Virus record (IMG/VR): IMGVR_UViG_3300044834_000020
Location: 1 to 44,276 of that record
DNA length: 44,276 nt
DNA from: a virus
Reading direction: 5' to 3' (one strand)
In this document: positions 3,008-44,082 of the stretch, one piece after another
Layout: the number at the start of each line of letters is the position of its first letter
Position numbering within the stretch: the first letter of the stretch is position 1
The notes under the pieces: model-generated
What the model was told of the DNA's origin: nothing
What the model saw: only the letters and a program-made list of their open reading frames with translations
Databases searched by the model: none
Made by a program: the position numbers and the translations under genes

Positions 3008-3800
3008 CGGAAGGAACCGCGTCGTACGAGACGCGCAACTCAAGTGGGAGTCGATCGCTTTGATGCGGGTCTCCCCGCTGGCGCAGCGCGAGCTGAACCA
3101 GGCCCGCGTCGACCACCTCGTGGCGAACTTCAACGTCGAGGAGATCGGCACGCCGACCGTCAACCGGCGCGGCGGAAGCCTGTTCATCATCGACGGCCAG
3201 CACCGCATCCAGGCGATGCGGGACATCGGCTGGGATGACCAGCAGGTGCAGTGCTGGGTCTACGAAGGGCTGACCGAGGAGCAGGAGGCCGAGAAGTTCC
3301 TCCAGCTCAACGACACGCTGACCGTGAACGGGTTCGCCAAGTTCCGGGTCGGCGTGCGGGCCGGGCGCGACGACGAGTGCGCCATCGACGGCATCGTTCA
3401 GAAGACCGGGCTGTGCGTCTCCCAGGACAAGGTCGCCGGCGCGATCTCCGCCGTCGGCACCTTGCGCCGCGTCTACACGCGTTCCGACGGGCCGACGCTC
3501 GCACGGACACTCGGCATCATCCGTGACGCGTACGGCGACTCGGGTCTGGAGGCCGCCGTCATCGACGGCATCGGCCTGCTCTGCCAGCGCTACAACGGCG
3601 AGCTGGACGTGCCGGTCGCGGTGGAGCGGCTGAGCAAGGCCCACGGTGGCGTCAACGGTCTGCTCGGGGACGCCCAGAAGCTGCGGCTGAGCACCGGTAA
3701 CCAGAAGGGTCACTGCGTCGCCGCCGCTGCGGTGAACATCATCAACCGCGGCCGGGGTGGCAAGAAGCTGCCGTCGTGGTGGCGCGAGGACATGGCATGA
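2994..3800 (+). CDS. ParB/sulfiredoxin-fold protein (DUF6551-like)
   Basis: A 268-residue protein with the ParB-type motif FIIDGQHRIQAM (GQHR at residues 68-71) followed by YEGLTEEQEAEKFLQLND, as in the DUF6551 group of actinophage ParB-like proteins. The ParB fold binds CTP or acts as a nuclease in different families; which applies here cannot be read from sequence. GTG start at 2994 inside the end of the preceding gene; the stop overlaps the next ATG. No ParA is nearby, which argues against classical plasmid partition. Confidence 0.72.
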   Translation: MSQSNGRNRVVRDAQLKWESIALMRVSPLAQRELNQARVDHLVANFNVEEIGTPTVNRRGGSLFIIDGQHRIQAMRDIGWDDQQVQCWVYEGLTEEQEAEKFLQLNDTLTVNGFAKFRVGVRAGRDDECAIDGIVQKTGLCVSQDKVAGAISAVGTLRRVYTRSDGPTLARTLGIIRDAYGDSGLEAAVIDGIGLLCQRYNGELDVPVAVERLSKAHGGVNGLLGDAQKLRLSTGNQKGHCVAAAAVNIINRGRGGKKLPSWWREDMA

Positions 3801-8834: not shown

Positions 8835-9301
8835 CCGCCGCTCACACTGCCCGCGGCAAGGAGACCGAACGCATGGCCGCCCGCTGGTTCCGCGCCAACG
8901 GCTACCCCGGCTGCGAACGCACCGTCCGCACCGGCTACCGCACTCCCGCCCGGGAACTCGCCGACCACGCCGACCTCGACCTGTGCCCCGGCCTCATCGC
9001 CCAGGTGAAGTCCCTGCGCCCCGCCAACCGCGCCGAACGCGCCGTCACCGGGTGGATGCGCGAGACGGAGGTACAGCGCGATGTCTGCGGTGCGGACGTA
9101 GGGCTGTTGGTCGTCCGACGGGAGGGCACGGCCGATGTCGGCGAGTGGTGGGCGTGGCTGTGGCTTGACGACGCCGCGGCGCTGCACACGGGGGGGCTTT
9201 ACACCTCCCTGTACCAGATCCCCGTCCGCCTGCTGCTCTCCGACGCCGTCACCCTCCTCCGCCACGCCGGGTACGGCACGCCCCCGGACGGTGCGGCGTG
9301 A
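8831..9301 (+). CDS. PD-(D/E)XK nuclease-like protein, possible Holliday junction resolvase
   Basis: A 156-residue protein with the fold signature of small phage and archaeal resolvases: GKETERMAARWFRANGY (E13), ADHADLDL with the acidic D48/D50, and LIAQVKSL where Q58-V-K60 fills the E-x-K position. In the family this site cuts branched DNA. The replacement of the usual Glu by Gln is seen in some resolvases. It lies in the recombination part of the early operon, which suits branch resolution before packaging. Confidence 0.65.
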   Translation: MTAAHTARGKETERMAARWFRANGYPGCERTVRTGYRTPARELADHADLDLCPGLIAQVKSLRPANRAERAVTGWMRETEVQRDVCGADVGLLVVRREGTADVGEWWAWLWLDDAAALHTGGLYTSLYQIPVRLLLSDAVTLLRHAGYGTPPDGAA

Positions 9302-9597
9302 GGCCCGACCACGTCGGCGAGCAGTGCCCTGTGTGTGGCACGCGCGCTGCAGACGACATGCACATAGCGCGTTGCAGGTACCGCGACGCGCTACGGGTAG
9401 ACCTACGGTCGAGGGCCGGCCGGAGCGGCATCCCGGCAGTGTCGGCAGACGACCTGTTCGCCCACCTCGCGAACATCTACGAGGACTCGAGCCTGGCCCA
9501 CCGGGCAGCCGCGAACGCCATCGACTTGGGCTGGCGACCCGTCGTCGGTAGCAACCCTGACCGGCTCTGGACCGCACCCACCGAGGCCACCCCGTGA
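9298..9597 (+). CDS. Hypothetical protein with CxxC motif
   Basis: A 99-residue protein starting at GTG 9298. The N-terminus has QCPVCGTRAADDMHIARC, which could hold zinc with the later Cys and His. The remainder is helical (VSADDLFAHLANIYEDSS). Position 70-90 ends with GWRPVVGSNPDRLW. No family recognised. Confidence 0.6.
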   Translation: MRPDHVGEQCPVCGTRAADDMHIARCRYRDALRVDLRSRAGRSGIPAVSADDLFAHLANIYEDSSLAHRAAANAIDLGWRPVVGSNPDRLWTAPTEATP

Positions 9598-10163
9598 CCC
9601 GCCTCGCCGCCGTCCTGGCCGCCGTCCTGCTGCTGATGCTGGCCGCACCGAAGCCCGCCCGCGCCGACACCCCCACCGGTGTGCACCCGACGCTGGGGCC
9701 GGTGGTGTGGGGCAAGGCCGGGGTCCCCACGACGGTGGAGCCGATCTTCGTCGCCTACACCGAGGAGGAGGTCGGGTCGTGGCGGCTGGACAGGGCGATC
9801 GACGGCTGGAACGCCAGCCCCGCGGTGAACCTCGTCGGGGTCCTGGAGTGTCACCCGGACTACCACCTGTGCGTCACCGTCCACACCTACCGCGCTGAAG
9901 GCATCGAGACCCGCCCCGGATGGGGCGACTCGGCCGGGGTGCCGATCCCGGTGTACGCCGCCGGCTGGTACCTCCCCGGCCGGATCGAGCTGAACACCGC
10001 GGCATGGGAGGACAACCCGCGAGCCCGCCAAGCGGTCGCGTGCCACGAGCTCGGGCACGCCCTCGGCCTCGACCACCACCCCGGACAGGGCTGCATGGAC
10101 ACCTACGCCGGGGACCCCACCACACCTCTCTGGCTACTGCCAGCGAAGGAGACAACGCCGTGA
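9594..10163 (+). CDS. Secreted metzincin-type zinc protease
   Basis: A 189-residue protein with a clear Sec signal peptide (residues 1-25, hydrophobic core AAVLAAVLLLMLAA, cleavage probably after ARA). The catalytic motif is HELGHALGLDH (H151, E152, H155, H161 as zinc ligands and base) with a Met-turn in GCMDT (M168), so it belongs with matrixin/reprolysin-like metzincins. It would act outside the cell or at the wall. The gene is embedded in a cytoplasmic early operon with GTGA couplings, which is unexpected. Cysteines C86, C93 and C150 may form disulfides. Confidence 0.85.
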   Translation: MTRLAAVLAAVLLLMLAAPKPARADTPTGVHPTLGPVVWGKAGVPTTVEPIFVAYTEEEVGSWRLDRAIDGWNASPAVNLVGVLECHPDYHLCVTVHTYRAEGIETRPGWGDSAGVPIPVYAAGWYLPGRIELNTAAWEDNPRARQAVACHELGHALGLDHHPGQGCMDTYAGDPTTPLWLLPAKETTP

Positions 10164-21811: not shown

Positions 21812-22894
21812 ATGCTCACCATCCTTATGGTGGCCGCGCTCATCGCGGCCGTGGCGATCACCGCCAACCTGCTCACTCGGCTGGCTCCCTTCGCGGGGTC
21901 GCTGCGAGCCCGACTGTCCGCCGTCCTCGCAACGGCCGACCTGGGCGCCGTGACCCTCGCGGACAGCCAGGTCGTCTCCCCCGACCCGCGACTGCCCGGG
22001 GTACTGCGTGTCCTGGAGACCTCCACCACGGTGCTCGACCGGCTCCCGTTCGAGTCGATCGCCGGCGGCGCGTTCACCTACAACCAGGACGCAACGCTGC
22101 CCGCTGCCGCGTTCCGGGCCGTCAACGCCGGCTACACCGAGTCGACCGGCACGTACACCACCGCGACCGAGTCACTGGTCATCCTCGGTGGCGAGTACGT
22201 GGTGGACCGGTTCCTCGAGCAGACCCGCAGCAACGGGGCGATCGCGTCGCTGATCGCGGACCAGCGGGACCTGAAGGTCCGCAGCATCAACGCGAAGTTT
22301 TCCGACGCGTTCATCAACGGTGACACCGCGGTCGACGCCAACTCGTTCAACGGGCTGAAGAAGCGGCTCACCGGCGCGCAGGTGCTGTCGTCGGGCACGA
22401 ACGGTGCCGCGATAAACACCGACCAGGCGACCCGATTCGCGTTCTTCGACCGGCTCAACACCCTCCTCGCGCTCGTGCCCGGCGTGGACGCGCTGTACAT
22501 GAACGCCTCCGTGCTGGCCACCATCCGGTCCGCCATGGTCCGCGAAACGATGATCAACACTCGGCTGGAGGACCTCGGGGCGCGCCGCGAGGTGCTCACC
22601 TGGAACGGCGTCCCGATGCTCGACATCGGCAACAAGGCCGACCAGACCCCGATCATCCCCCAGACCGAGACGCAGGGCTCGTCGTCCGTCGCGTCCTCGA
22701 TCTACGCGGTCAACTTCACCCAGAGCCTCGGCGAGCCCGGCGTCGTCGGCATCACCAACGGCGGCCTGCAGGTCGACCCGCCGGTGCAGCTGGAGACCAA
22801 GCCGTCCTGGATGGGCCGCGTCGAGTTCTACTGCGGCGTCGCTCTGCTCGGTGCCAAGCCGGCCGCGCGCCTGACCGGTGTCCTCGCCTCCTAA
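21812..22894 (+). CDS. Major capsid protein (HK97 fold)
   Basis: A 360-residue protein at the expected place after scaffold, with ribosome site GAAAGGA (21797-21803). Features of actinophage HK97-fold capsid proteins: PRLPGVLRVLETSTTVLDRL, YTESTGTYTTATESLVILGG (E-loop/P-domain), an N-to-C helix and the terminal RVEFYCGVALLGAKPAARLT. Unusually, residues 1-22 are strongly hydrophobic (LTILMVAALIAAVAITANLL), more like a membrane helix than a scaffold-binding region. Confidence 0.88.
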   Translation: MLTILMVAALIAAVAITANLLTRLAPFAGSLRARLSAVLATADLGAVTLADSQVVSPDPRLPGVLRVLETSTTVLDRLPFESIAGGAFTYNQDATLPAAAFRAVNAGYTESTGTYTTATESLVILGGEYVVDRFLEQTRSNGAIASLIADQRDLKVRSINAKFSDAFINGDTAVDANSFNGLKKRLTGAQVLSSGTNGAAINTDQATRFAFFDRLNTLLALVPGVDALYMNASVLATIRSAMVRETMINTRLEDLGARREVLTWNGVPMLDIGNKADQTPIIPQTETQGSSSVASSIYAVNFTQSLGEPGVVGITNGGLQVDPPVQLETKPSWMGRVEFYCGVALLGAKPAARLTGVLAS

Positions 22895-23631: not shown

Positions 23632-24057
23632 ATGGGCTGGTGGACGAACGCCGGCAAGGCCGACCTCCTCGCCGGCGGGATCGCTGGGCGCGAGTTCCGT
23701 GCGCTGCTGGTTACCACCGCACCTGCGTCGGCGGCGGTGGCAGCTGACCTCAACACGGTCTCGCAGGTGACGGCCAACGAGATCGCGGGTCAGCGCCAGA
23801 CGTTGTCCGGGATGACGGTCATCGAGGACGACACCAACGACCGGGCGGCGCTGGACGCCAACGACCCGGCGCAGTACACCGGCATGAACGGCCCGGTGAT
23901 CGTCGGGCTGTGGGTGTACCGGCGGATCACCAACGGGGCGGACGCCGACGCGACGGACAAGCTGTGGGCGTTCCTGGCCCTGACCCCGAACATCACGACC
24001 AACAGCGGGCCGGTGAACATCACGTTCAGTGCGACCGGCATAGCCACGATCACCTGA
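23632..24057 (+). CDS. Hypothetical head/virion protein
   Basis: A 141-residue, beta-rich protein in the head completion region (GREFRALLVTTAPASAAVAA; VIVGLWVYRRITNGA; INITFSATGIATIT-like C-terminus). No family recognised. Translation probably depends on the upstream in-frame leader because the ATG at 23632 has no Shine-Dalgarno of its own. Confidence 0.65.
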   Translation: MGWWTNAGKADLLAGGIAGREFRALLVTTAPASAAVAADLNTVSQVTANEIAGQRQTLSGMTVIEDDTNDRAALDANDPAQYTGMNGPVIVGLWVYRRITNGADADATDKLWAFLALTPNITTNSGPVNITFSATGIATIT

Positions 24058-24058
24058 C

Positions 24059-24703
24059 ATGGCGCTGCCCAACGACAGTCATGTGTCCGGCGGCACCACG
24101 TTCGCCACCAGCCTCGTCGGCGGCAAGGAGTACCCGGTCGGCATGCTCGCCGACCAGGACGGCCACATCCAGGGGTCGTTGCCGGCGTGGGGCTTCGTCG
24201 TTCCGCCGGTCGCGGTGGGCGCGGCCAAGGTCTACTTCGACCTGTTCAACGCCCAGGCGGCGACGGTGCTGCGGTTGCGGAAGCTGTTCGCGATCGTCGC
24301 GACGGACGTGGCGGTCGCACCGACCGTGGGTGTCCGGCTCGACGTGATGCGCACCTCCGCGGTCGGCACCGCCGGCACCGCGTTCGCCGGCCCGACCTCG
24401 GCGTCGAAGACGGCGGCGGCATTCTGGCCCTTCGCCCGCGGCAACTCGCTGCCAATCGGGGTCACTGGTCGGGCCGTCCCAACGGGTGGGGCCACCGACC
24501 AGGCGTGGCTGTTCCCGTCCTACATCTTCACCGAGGAGACCGCGCCGGGCGCGCACCTGGCGCAGATGTTCAACCTGCTGCCCGACATGCCGATGGACCA
24601 GGCGATCGAGCTGGACAACGGAGCCGGCTTGAAGGTCGTGCAGGGCAGCGTCGCCTCGGTCGGGACCATCGGCTTCTTCGGCACCTTCACCATCGAGTCG
24701 TAG
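24059..24703 (+). CDS. Hypothetical virion protein
   Basis: A 214-residue beta-rich protein (TTFATSLVGGKEYPVGMLAD; a helix DLFNAQAATVLRLRKLFAIV; GTIGFFGTFTIES at the end). One base separates it from the preceding stop. It lies between capsid and connector genes, so a head decoration or fibre role is possible. No family recognised. Confidence 0.65.
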   Translation: MALPNDSHVSGGTTFATSLVGGKEYPVGMLADQDGHIQGSLPAWGFVVPPVAVGAAKVYFDLFNAQAATVLRLRKLFAIVATDVAVAPTVGVRLDVMRTSAVGTAGTAFAGPTSASKTAAAFWPFARGNSLPIGVTGRAVPTGGATDQAWLFPSYIFTEETAPGAHLAQMFNLLPDMPMDQAIELDNGAGLKVVQGSVASVGTIGFFGTFTIES

Positions 24704-24705
24704 CC

Positions 24706-25566
24706 GTGTGGCTGATCCCGGTCCTGGACGACCCGGGGCCCGCCGAGCAGTCCGGCACGCTGGACGTGGCAACCGTCGTGACGTCGGTGCTGGACGCCAG
24801 CGGCACCGCCGGAGCAGTCAGCCGGGCACTGGACGTCGCTGGGCTGTCCGCTGCCGGGCTGGATGCGTCTGCTGCAGCTGGTCCCGTCAGCGCGGCAGTC
24901 GATGTCGCCGGCGTGACGCTGGGGGCGCTGGACGGGACGCTGACCCCCGGGGCGGTCAGCGGCGGTCTGGACGTAGCGGCCTCGACTGCTGCGGTGCAGG
25001 ACGCCACCGGCAGCACCGTGCAGGCGCAGTCGGGCGTGCTGGACACCGCGACGTCGTTCGCCATCGTGGTGGATCCCACAGCCTCCCCTGGTGCGGTGAC
25101 CGGTGCCCTGGACACGGCCGGCGTCACCGTGGCCGTGATCGACCTCGGCGGCACACCGGGAGCGGCTGCCGGTGTTCTGGCAACCGCGACCCTGGCCAGC
25201 GGCGGGCTTGACGTCACTGGCGCGGCCGGGGCCGTGTCCGGTCAACTGGACGCCGCTGGTGCTACCGCGGACACCCTCGCCGCGGCCGGTTCGACCGCCG
25301 AGGAGCAGTGGGCCGTCCTGGACACCGCGACCGCGTCGACTGGGGGCATCGACGCCGTCCTGAACTTGGTGCCCGTCGAGACCCTGGCGGACATCGCTGC
25401 GCTGACGGTGCAGGCGCTAGGTGCCATGGCTTCGATCAGTGAGGGAGCTCCCGTGGTGACGCCGCGTCCATACCAGGGTGTCGTCGCTCACGCTCGCGTC
25501 CTGCATCCTCGACCGGCCGCCGGCGCGACCGTTCCGCCCGACGACGGGACTACTCCGAGACCATGA
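24706..25566 (+). CDS. Protein of tandem 23-residue repeats
   Basis: A 286-residue protein from GTG 24706. Residues 17 to about 217 form eight and a half tandem repeats of 23 (twice 24) residues with the consensus x-x-L-D-V/T-A-x5-x-V-x-D-x-S/T-G-T-x-G-A-V-S; the LD, A and GAVS positions recur almost every time (for example GTLDVATVVTSVLDAS, RALDVAGLSAAGLDAS, GALDTAGVTVAVID). Such short Gly/Ala/Val/Asp repeats often build beta solenoids. The last 65 residues are non-repetitive and Pro-rich. It sits between the head genes and connectors. No family recognised; a fibrous head or neck part is the simplest guess. Confidence 0.75.
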   Translation: MWLIPVLDDPGPAEQSGTLDVATVVTSVLDASGTAGAVSRALDVAGLSAAGLDASAAAGPVSAAVDVAGVTLGALDGTLTPGAVSGGLDVAASTAAVQDATGSTVQAQSGVLDTATSFAIVVDPTASPGAVTGALDTAGVTVAVIDLGGTPGAAAGVLATATLASGGLDVTGAAGAVSGQLDAAGATADTLAAAGSTAEEQWAVLDTATASTGGIDAVLNLVPVETLADIAALTVQALGAMASISEGAPVVTPRPYQGVVAHARVLHPRPAAGATVPPDDGTTPRP

Positions 25567-38662: not shown

Positions 38663-38962
38663 GTGCCCACTTTCACATTCGCCATCGACCTGAACATGCT
38701 CCGCGGCGACGTGGTGGCCACACATCTCGAGATGCTTCTGGCACCGGTAGCGAGGATCCGGGACCCCGAGCCGGGCGACAGGGTCATCGCCGTTGACGAG
38801 GATGACGCCAGGCATGAGGCCGTCGTTGAGTCGCTCGACGGGGACTGGCTCATCCTCCGCCTAAACCCCAGCGGCGGCACTAGGCTCAATCCACCGTTCC
38901 CCGGCTCCTTGACGTGGGCCTCAGGTGAGCGTCCTCCCCGCCTGTGCGGTGGTGCCAGGTGA
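38663..38962 (+). CDS. Hypothetical protein upstream of endolysin
   Basis: A 99-residue protein. GTG 38663 has GGGAGGAG at 38650-38657; a GTG at 38639 overlapping the nuclease stop is the alternative. It has acidic segments (VARIRDPEPGDRVIAVDEDD) and beta strands. Function unknown; coupled to the endolysin by GTGA. Confidence 0.55.
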   Translation: MPTFTFAIDLNMLRGDVVATHLEMLLAPVARIRDPEPGDRVIAVDEDDARHEAVVESLDGDWLILRLNPSGGTRLNPPFPGSLTWASGERPPRLCGGAR

Positions 38963-39870
38963 AGGACCAGACCTACCCTCGCGCGGACACCAAGGCGCAG
39001 TGGTTCGAGGACAACTACCCCGGCGCGGTGATGGACGCCAACTGCGGGGTCATCCACACCACGGAGACCATCGGCTGGCCGGGGTACGAGGGCGGCGCGA
39101 CCGCCCCGAACCTGACCGGCCGCCCGGTCATGGCAGAGAAGCGCATCGCGTGGCGGCAGCACTTCCCGATCGACCGCTCCAGCCGGGCCCTGCGCAACAC
39201 CGCCGGCGGGGTCCAGACCAACACTCTGAACGTCGCGCAGGTGGAGCTCGTCGGGTCCTGCGACCCCAAGCACAAGGACACGTGGAAGGTCGGCAGCCGC
39301 ACCCTGCGCGCCGGCGTGGACTACGTGTACTGGCCCGACGCACCGGACTGGGCGCTGCGCGACCTCGGTCACCTGCTGGCCTGGTGCCAGAGCGAGCACG
39401 GCATCCCCGCGACGTCCCCGATCCGGGGCCGCTGGACCCCCTATCCCGAGTCCTACGGCCCGGGCGGGCAGCGGCTCAGCAACGACGCGTGGCGGGGACT
39501 GTCCGGTTGGGTCGGTCACCAGCACGTGCCCGAGAACCTGCACGGCGACCCCGGCGCGCTGAACTTCCCCCGCGCCGTCATGTGGGCCACCGAGTACCTC
39601 AAGCCCACCGCGAAGAAGCCCGCCGCCAAGAAGGCCAGCGCCGTCGTCCAGATCCCCGCCGCCACCCTCACCGCCCTCGCCGATGGAGGCGACATGTTCC
39701 AGCCGATGTTCGTGCGCGTGAAGGGCAAGTCCGCGGTCTACGTGGTCACCCTCGCCGGCGCCCGCCACGTCAAGAACCAGACCGAGAAGCGCTTCCTCGA
39801 GCAGGGCGGGGTCACCCGCACCGTCGAGGTCACCGCCACCGAGCTCGCCCAGCTGCTGGAGAAGGAGTGA
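38959..39870 (+). CDS. Endolysin, N-acetylmuramoyl-L-alanine amidase type
   Basis: A 303-residue protein from GTG 38959. The amidase_2-type domain includes H33 in GVIHTTET, E96 in VAQVELVG, and H187/H189 with D197 in GWVGHQHVPENLHGDPG (zinc ligands and active-site residues). After residue about 215 a Lys/Ala/Pro linker (KPAAKKASA) leads to a small C-terminal domain with no clear family, likely the wall-binding part. It would cut peptidoglycan crossbridges at lysis. Confidence 0.88.
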   Translation: MKDQTYPRADTKAQWFEDNYPGAVMDANCGVIHTTETIGWPGYEGGATAPNLTGRPVMAEKRIAWRQHFPIDRSSRALRNTAGGVQTNTLNVAQVELVGSCDPKHKDTWKVGSRTLRAGVDYVYWPDAPDWALRDLGHLLAWCQSEHGIPATSPIRGRWTPYPESYGPGGQRLSNDAWRGLSGWVGHQHVPENLHGDPGALNFPRAVMWATEYLKPTAKKPAAKKASAVVQIPAATLTALADGGDMFQPMFVRVKGKSAVYVVTLAGARHVKNQTEKRFLEQGGVTRTVEVTATELAQLLEKE

Positions 39871-42127: not shown

Positions 42128-42155
42128 GAGTGGTATCGTCGCAGTTCAGAAGGGG

Positions 42156-42229
42156 TGGGGCGGCTGGGACTCGAACCCAGGACCCAGGGATTATGAGTCC
42201 CTTGCTCTAACCGGCTGAGCTACCGCCCC
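42156..42229 (-). tRNA. tRNA-Met (CAT), complete, at the phage boundary
   Basis: A 74-nt cloverleaf: acceptor GGGGCGG/CCGCCCC, D-arm GCTC...GAGC, anticodon stem AGGGA/TCCCT with loop CTCATAA (anticodon CAT), and TTCGAGT loop. CC follows the discriminator A but the final A is not encoded. It is taken as attR because the phage genes end beside it, and a partial copy of its 5' half occurs at 43868. Confidence 0.92.
42195..42214. other. Attachment-site core candidate, copy 1
   Basis: GAGTCCCTTGCTCTAACCGG in the tRNA-Met gene, from the anticodon edge into the D-arm. The identical 20 bp occur at 43868-43887. The end of identity at the anticodon fits strand exchange in the anticodon loop. Confidence 0.6.
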
Positions 42230-43987: not shown

Positions 43988-44009
43988 CGACGCTGGGCCG
44001 GGGTGAGGG

Positions 44010-44082
<73 letters not shown>

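What the first reader, a model, noticed from the sequence alone, without database searches (positions are those of the whole stretch)
24706..25566. Tandem 23-residue repeat protein of unknown family in the head region
Seen: about 8.5 repeats of 23 residues with a firm LD-x-A...G-A-V-S register over 200 residues, in a gene wedged between virion genes. The pattern does not match collagen, pentapeptide or known fibre repeats I can recall. Inference: a beta-solenoid rod, for example a head or neck whisker whose length depends on repeat number.
Basis: partly seen in the sequence, partly recalled or inferred. Interest (0 to 1): 0.6.

Follow-up and report, generated by a model that had tools for sequence, protein, structure and literature searches.

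The report
Swappable-repeat rod protein of phages
This phage gene encodes a repeat-built, probably rod-like particle protein belonging to a scattered group whose two ends stay the same while the repeated middle is exchanged or lengthened between closely related phages, which suggests an interchangeable surface appendage.

Summary
The repeat is real. Window 24706-25566 (+, GTG start, 286 aa) holds eight full 23-24-residue units plus a partial ninth, far above shuffles. Codon-position conservation shows that this frame is the coding one.

No database named it, and the closest capsid relatives lack it. Its gene neighbours explain it. It is the third gene, C, of an inserted cassette A (23632-24057), B (24059-24703), C. 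B has relatives at 36-64% identity in uncultured phages; in seven of the nine B loci examined, this one included, a tandem-repeat protein is the next gene.

A wider set of 28 C-type proteins shares a hydrophobic start (M-x-LL-x-LL type) and a period of 19-23 residues, although most bodies are unrelated. Near-identical contigs show bodies replaced between constant ends, and the gain of exactly one 21-residue unit.

Best reading: a modular virion appendage, probably a beta rod, anchored by its N-terminus. The rod fold is not shown: single-sequence AlphaFold gave pLDDT 39. Placement on head, neck or tail is open. One relative is fused to a tail-terminator domain, and relatives of A match the Bxb1 'tail wing arm'.

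The parts
24706..25566 (+). gene C: repeat protein, 286 aa, GTG start two bases after the stop of gene B
24706..24756 (+). N-terminal segment MWLIPVLDDPGPAEQSG; its hydrophobic start resembles the M-x-LL-x-LL anchor of the group (hydrophobicity of residues 2-7 in the top 2% of 151 background genes)
24757..25314 (+). eight tandem units of 23-24 residues (residues 18-203), arranged as two super-units of 23+23+23+24
25315..25362 (+). partial ninth unit (VLDTATASTGGIDAVL)
25363..25563 (+). non-repeat, proline-rich C-terminal tail ending TTPRP (the L009 relative ends VTPRP)
24059..24703 (+). gene B: all-beta protein, 214 aa, conserved neighbour (36-64% identity to relatives)
23632..24057 (+). gene A: probable distant relative of phrog_644 (E 0.001), the family that contains the Bxb1 gp31 'tail wing arm'

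Best explanation
Gene C encodes a rod-like virion appendage, the third part of a mobile three-gene cassette (A, B, C) inserted between the capsid and adaptor genes of this siphophage. The short hydrophobic N-terminus docks to a conserved partner (B is the likely one). The repeats, one structural turn each (most likely a beta-solenoid or similar beta rod), set the length. The non-repeat C-terminal tail caps the rod or binds. Selection keeps the period and the ends, not the repeat sequence, so whole bodies can be exchanged and units added or lost. Shown: the repeat, the coding frame, the cassette, the constant period in relatives, body swaps and a one-unit gain in relatives. Inferred: virion location, docking to B, beta-rod fold, surface or host-contact role.
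For: B relatives sit directly upstream of a repeat protein in the window, L009, L010, L011, L016, L018 and L019. 28 C-type proteins, including the window's, all have a base period of 19-23. In an unrestricted 8-60 scan 29 of 31 repeat ORFs fall at 19-24, while blastp links only small clusters of them. The hydrophobic start is seen in 24 of 26 C proteins against 10 of 151 background genes. L077 and L078 are 98% identical for 3156 bp up to about codon 109 of C, then have unrelated bodies. L074 and L078 share roughly the first 10-13 and last ~38 codons of C plus flanks, with the middle replaced. L076 has exactly one more 21-aa unit than L077. Other C proteins carry virion domains: L085 minor tail phrog_553 (1.6e-8), L107 tail protein phrog_5939 (9e-20), L069 tail terminator phrog_4204 (8e-33). 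The A-family profile hits Bxb1 tail wing arm gp31 in PDB 9d93, E 1.5e-11. Hydrophobic moment of the window's repeats is beta-like rather than helix-like (z 3.2 at 160 degrees, 0.6 at 100).
Against: No experimental particle data. AlphaFold of C from a single sequence has pLDDT 38.8 with scattered low-confidence helices, and the hydrophobic-moment test is inconsistent across relatives. The window's C shares no significant sequence with any other C; its membership rests on the B neighbour, its place after B, the period and a weak N-terminal likeness. The N-terminal pattern was drawn from the same proteins that it was tested on. Gene A of the window is only a marginal match. B also occurs without A and C in podovirus-like loci L029-L035, and some C-like starts have no repeats (L051, L079, L081, L088, L089).
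Confidence: 0.6

Rival explanations
1. C is a tail-tip or tail-side appendage (a minor tail protein, such as a part of a wing or side fibre), not a head or neck whisker; its place among head genes only reflects where the cassette was inserted.
For: Gene A family contains the Bxb1 gp31 'tail wing arm'. Relatives of C hit minor tail or tail families. phiT46-1 gene 23, next to an A gene, is a 23-residue-period repeat protein annotated minor tail protein. The cassette lies by tail genes in L044 and Pam2.
Against: L069 joins C to a tail terminator, a neck protein. In the window, L010, L016 and L101 the cassette lies among terminase, portal, scaffold and capsid genes. The A of the window is a marginal member.
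Confidence: 0.35
2. C is a flexible, largely disordered low-complexity linker or brush on the virion rather than a folded rod.
For: Low AlphaFold confidence; composition rich in Ala, Gly, Thr, Val; repeats tolerate almost any sequence across relatives.
Against: A fixed 19-23 residue period across unrelated sequences, with conserved hydrophobic and Asp positions inside units, is what a folded coil of fixed circumference would need; disordered linkers have no reason to hold a period.
Confidence: 0.2
3. C is not a virion protein but an intracellular assembly factor or a non-structural passenger gene.
For: No proteomic data; the gene is dispensable in related phages, since close capsid relatives lack it.
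Against: Virion domains fused to C in relatives; always near structural genes; B has an all-beta model with phage structural neighbours.
Confidence: 0.1
4. The repeat ORF is a non-coding frame artefact, and the real gene lies on the other strand or in another frame.
For: GC3 contrast is weak in this gene, and antisense ORFs of 241 and 176 aa exist.
Against: Units are conserved at codon positions 1 and 2 but not 3; the lag-23 signal is strongest in this frame; tight coupling to B and the same gene order in relatives.
Confidence: 0.02

Closest known systems
Mycobacteriophage Bxb1 tail wing (PDB 9d93, gp31 arm)
   Same: The A-family profile matches gp31 (E 1.5e-11), so one cassette partner has a solved virion relative.
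   Different: No match to C or B; the Bxb1 genes lie in the tail module; the window's A is only a marginal family member.
phrog_553 / phrog_8501 'minor tail protein' repeat proteins (e.g. phiT46-1 gene 23)
   Same: A 23-residue period repeat next to an A-type gene; L011, L020 and L085 C proteins hit these families.
   Different: The window's C has no hit to them; phiT46-1 gene 23 precedes A and does not begin with the M-x-LL-x-LL start.
Anabaena phage A-1(L) neck fibre gp82-gp81-gp80 (PMC10966104)
   Same: A three-gene operon builds a long thin appendage from an anchor, repeated beads and a distal unit; it works alike in principle.
   Different: Repetition there comes from many copies of gp81, not from tandem repeats inside one protein; no homology was shown here.
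TP901-1 neck passage structure (PMC4493119)
   Same: A dispensable fibre-like appendage at the head-tail junction of a siphophage.
   Different: Encoded after the baseplate genes, with a baseplate-like N-terminus; no homology was shown here.
L008 repeat protein (IMG/VR, 9121-10128)
   Same: A repeat protein with a period of about 20 residues (by eye) in the same slot between a capsid gene 50% identical and the adaptor region.
   Different: No M-x-LL-x-LL start, no B gene, ends in KWxxGEP motifs, unrelated sequence.

Membership tests
A-B-C cassette repeat proteins (grouping defined here) | encoded directly after a B-type gene | tested here: met
   B at 24059-24703 is 36-64% identical to relatives; C starts at 24706
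A-B-C cassette repeat proteins (grouping defined here) | tandem period of 19-24 residues | tested here: met
   period 23, z 8.6
A-B-C cassette repeat proteins (grouping defined here) | hydrophobic start of the type M-x-LL-x-LL | tested here: inconclusive
   MWLIPVL fits the loose pattern and is in the top 2% for hydrophobicity, but lacks the run of leucines
A-B-C cassette repeat proteins (grouping defined here) | A-type (phrog_644) gene upstream of B | tested here: inconclusive
   window A: phrog_644 E 0.001; hhalign E 1.6e-4, probability 50%
phrog_8501 / phrog_553 minor tail protein | profile match | tested here: not met
   no family at E <= 1 for the window's C
Beta-solenoid fold | confident model or structure with coils of about 20-30 residues | tested here: inconclusive
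   AlphaFold2 single sequence, pLDDT 38.8; the period length fits
Head or neck whisker | located at the head or neck of the particle | not testable with these tools
   needs EM or proteomics; L069 fusion to a tail terminator is suggestive only
Collagen-like or pentapeptide repeats | Gly-X-Y or five-residue period; Pfam match | tested here: not met
   period 23, no Pfam family above its cut-off

The most novel reading that the evidence does not exclude
A widespread, so far unnamed class of phage appendage proteins works as a period-constrained, sequence-free rod: a short constant N-terminal anchor and a constant tail hold a body that can be replaced wholesale by any sequence with a 19-23 residue beta period, giving phages rapid change of adhesive surface and of rod length.
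Probability: 0.45. Interest if true: 0.7.

Novelty: new variant of a known kind. Interest (0 to 1): 0.5.

Why it matters
Phage appendage genes are often unrecognisable by sequence. A rule based on neighbour gene, short anchor and fixed period finds such proteins where homology fails. The pairs L077/L078, L074/L078 and L076/L077 are ready natural experiments for asking what is exchanged on the particle surface and whether rod length follows repeat number, which can be measured by EM. If the body is free in sequence but fixed in period, it would also be a natural scaffold for fibres of chosen length.

Tried and rejected
Direct homology searches with C in viral contigs, phage records and PDB, and scans against Pfam and PHROGs, found nothing. 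The closest capsid relatives (Nyceirae, Rowa, Sleepyhead, Nesbitt) lack the cassette, so the gene is not part of the ancestral head module. The AlphaFold model of C was too poor to use and was not sent to fold search. The B model gave only weak viral-capsid-like jelly-roll matches in PDB (best E 0.027), so no function was read from them; matches to uncharacterised phage proteins in BFVD were significant. Searches of phage records with B and A of the window and with B of L010 were negative. The Bxb1 structure paper is not held, so the geometry of the tail wing was not checked. Literature searches on repeat-containing virion rods gave no description of this group, within an open-access library only.

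Full report
OBSERVATION. Window 24706-25566 encodes a 286-aa protein from a GTG two bases after the stop of the preceding gene. Eight units of 23-24 residues and part of a ninth lie in strict register. Lag-23 similarity is 158 against a shuffle mean of -116 (SD 33); the best value at any lag in 3000 shuffles was 59. A four-unit super-period of 93 (23+23+23+24) is also present, and each unit has two L-D half-motifs ten residues apart. The DNA of the units is diverged: Tandem Repeats Finder does not see them, and identity by codon position is 0.59/0.55/0.40. The pattern is therefore old and kept at protein level, in this frame. The gene also has lower synonymous GC3 than ten other virion genes of the window, 0.79 against 0.89 expected (z -5.5). 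This may reflect a foreign origin of the body, or avoidance of identical DNA between units; I could not tell which.

SURROUNDINGS. The order is terminase, portal, protease, scaffold, capsid (21812-22894), two small genes, A (23632-24057), B (24059-24703), C, adaptor (25577), then other connector genes, tail tube and tape measure (terminase, portal and the later connector genes are placed by gene order, not by a profile match). In the nearest capsid relatives (41-51% identity) the capsid is followed by one small gene and the adaptor, with no A, B or C. So A-B-C is an insert. Another capsid relative, L008, has a different repeat protein in the same slot.

RELATIVES THROUGH THE NEIGHBOUR. C itself finds nothing. 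B finds relatives in uncultured phages and two MAG contigs. Directly after B stands a repeat protein in the window, L009, L010, L011, L016, L018 and L019; L012 and L017 lack one. A-type genes stand before B in L010, L011 and L016. The cyanophage Pam2 has A, a short B-like N-terminal domain and, three genes on, a C with a 23-residue period. A search with the B of L016 brought 80 loci, most sharing only its N-terminal domain. Of 47 of these with at least 3.5 kb downstream, 24 carry a C with hydrophobic start and repeats, and 8 carry a similar start with weak or no repeats (my count; some contigs are near-duplicates).

WHAT IS CONSTANT AND WHAT IS NOT. Across 28 C proteins the base period is 19-23. 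In a scan not restricted by period, 29 of 31 repeat ORFs lie at 19-24. The starts are M-x-LL-x-LL-like: 24 of 26 fit, against 10 of 151 background genes, with the caveat that the pattern was drawn from these proteins. The bodies mostly have no detectable similarity to each other.

NATURAL EXPERIMENTS. L077 and L078 have 98% identical DNA for 3156 bp, up to about codon 109 of C, then unrelated repeat bodies. L074 and L078 share DNA up to roughly codons 10-13 of C, and again from the last ~38 codons onward (96%), with unrelated middles. L076 and L077 carry the same body, but L076 has 7 units to 6, a clean 63-bp (21-aa) difference. So ends are kept, bodies are swapped and units are gained or lost singly. 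These events are seen in relatives, not in the window's own lineage, for which no close relative exists.

PARTICLE LINKS. C of L085 contains a region like minor tail phrog_553, C of L107 one like tail protein phrog_5939, and C of L069 ends in a tail-terminator domain, phrog_4204. The A family matches the Bxb1 'tail wing arm' in PDB 9d93; the window's A is a marginal member. B is modelled as all-beta with moderate confidence (pLDDT 68, pTM 0.66). These support a virion appendage but pull in two directions on its place: neck (L069) or tail (A, minor tail). Cassettes occur near terminase and portal (L016), portal and protease (L010), scaffold and coat (L101), terminator and tail tube (L069) and after tail genes (L044) (gene names in these loci are mostly read by eye from the sequences), so gene position does not decide.

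STRUCTURE. AlphaFold2 of C without an alignment has pLDDT 38.8 and is uninformative. Neither the solenoid nor disorder is shown. A fixed period with free sequence is the main argument for a folded coil.

VERDICT. I file the gene as a probable member of a grouping defined here, with neighbour and period met and start and A gene inconclusive. It works like known phage fibres and whiskers; membership in any named family was not met.

Noticed in passing
L008:9121-10128: A 335-aa repeat protein with a period of about 20 residues (by eye; GSAIGVAAG type) sits in the same slot after a 50% identical capsid gene, and ends in KWxxGEP-type motifs; unrelated in sequence to the window's C.
   Followed up: partly
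L069:6056-7687: Repeat protein fused in frame to a tail-terminator domain (phrog_4204), although a separate terminator-like gene lies upstream at 3173-3586.
   Followed up: partly
L029-L035: Short B proteins occur without A or C in podovirus-like loci; in L031-L035 the next gene resembles a P22 gp10-like protein (by eye).
   Followed up: no
24706-25566: Synonymous GC3 of this gene is 0.79 against 0.89 expected from other virion genes (z -5.5); cause unknown.
   Followed up: partly
21812-22894: The listed capsid ORF has about 45 residues before the part that aligns with relatives; the true start may lie further downstream.
   Followed up: no
42154-42229 and 44008-44082: tRNA-Met and tRNA-Asn genes on the minus strand at the right end of the window; whether they mark an integration site was not tested.
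   Followed up: no
39601-39642: A 15-bp tandem repeat (AAGCCCACCGCCAAG) overlapping ORF 38944-39870, which has weak endolysin matches in its first 240 residues; possibly a linker.
   Followed up: no
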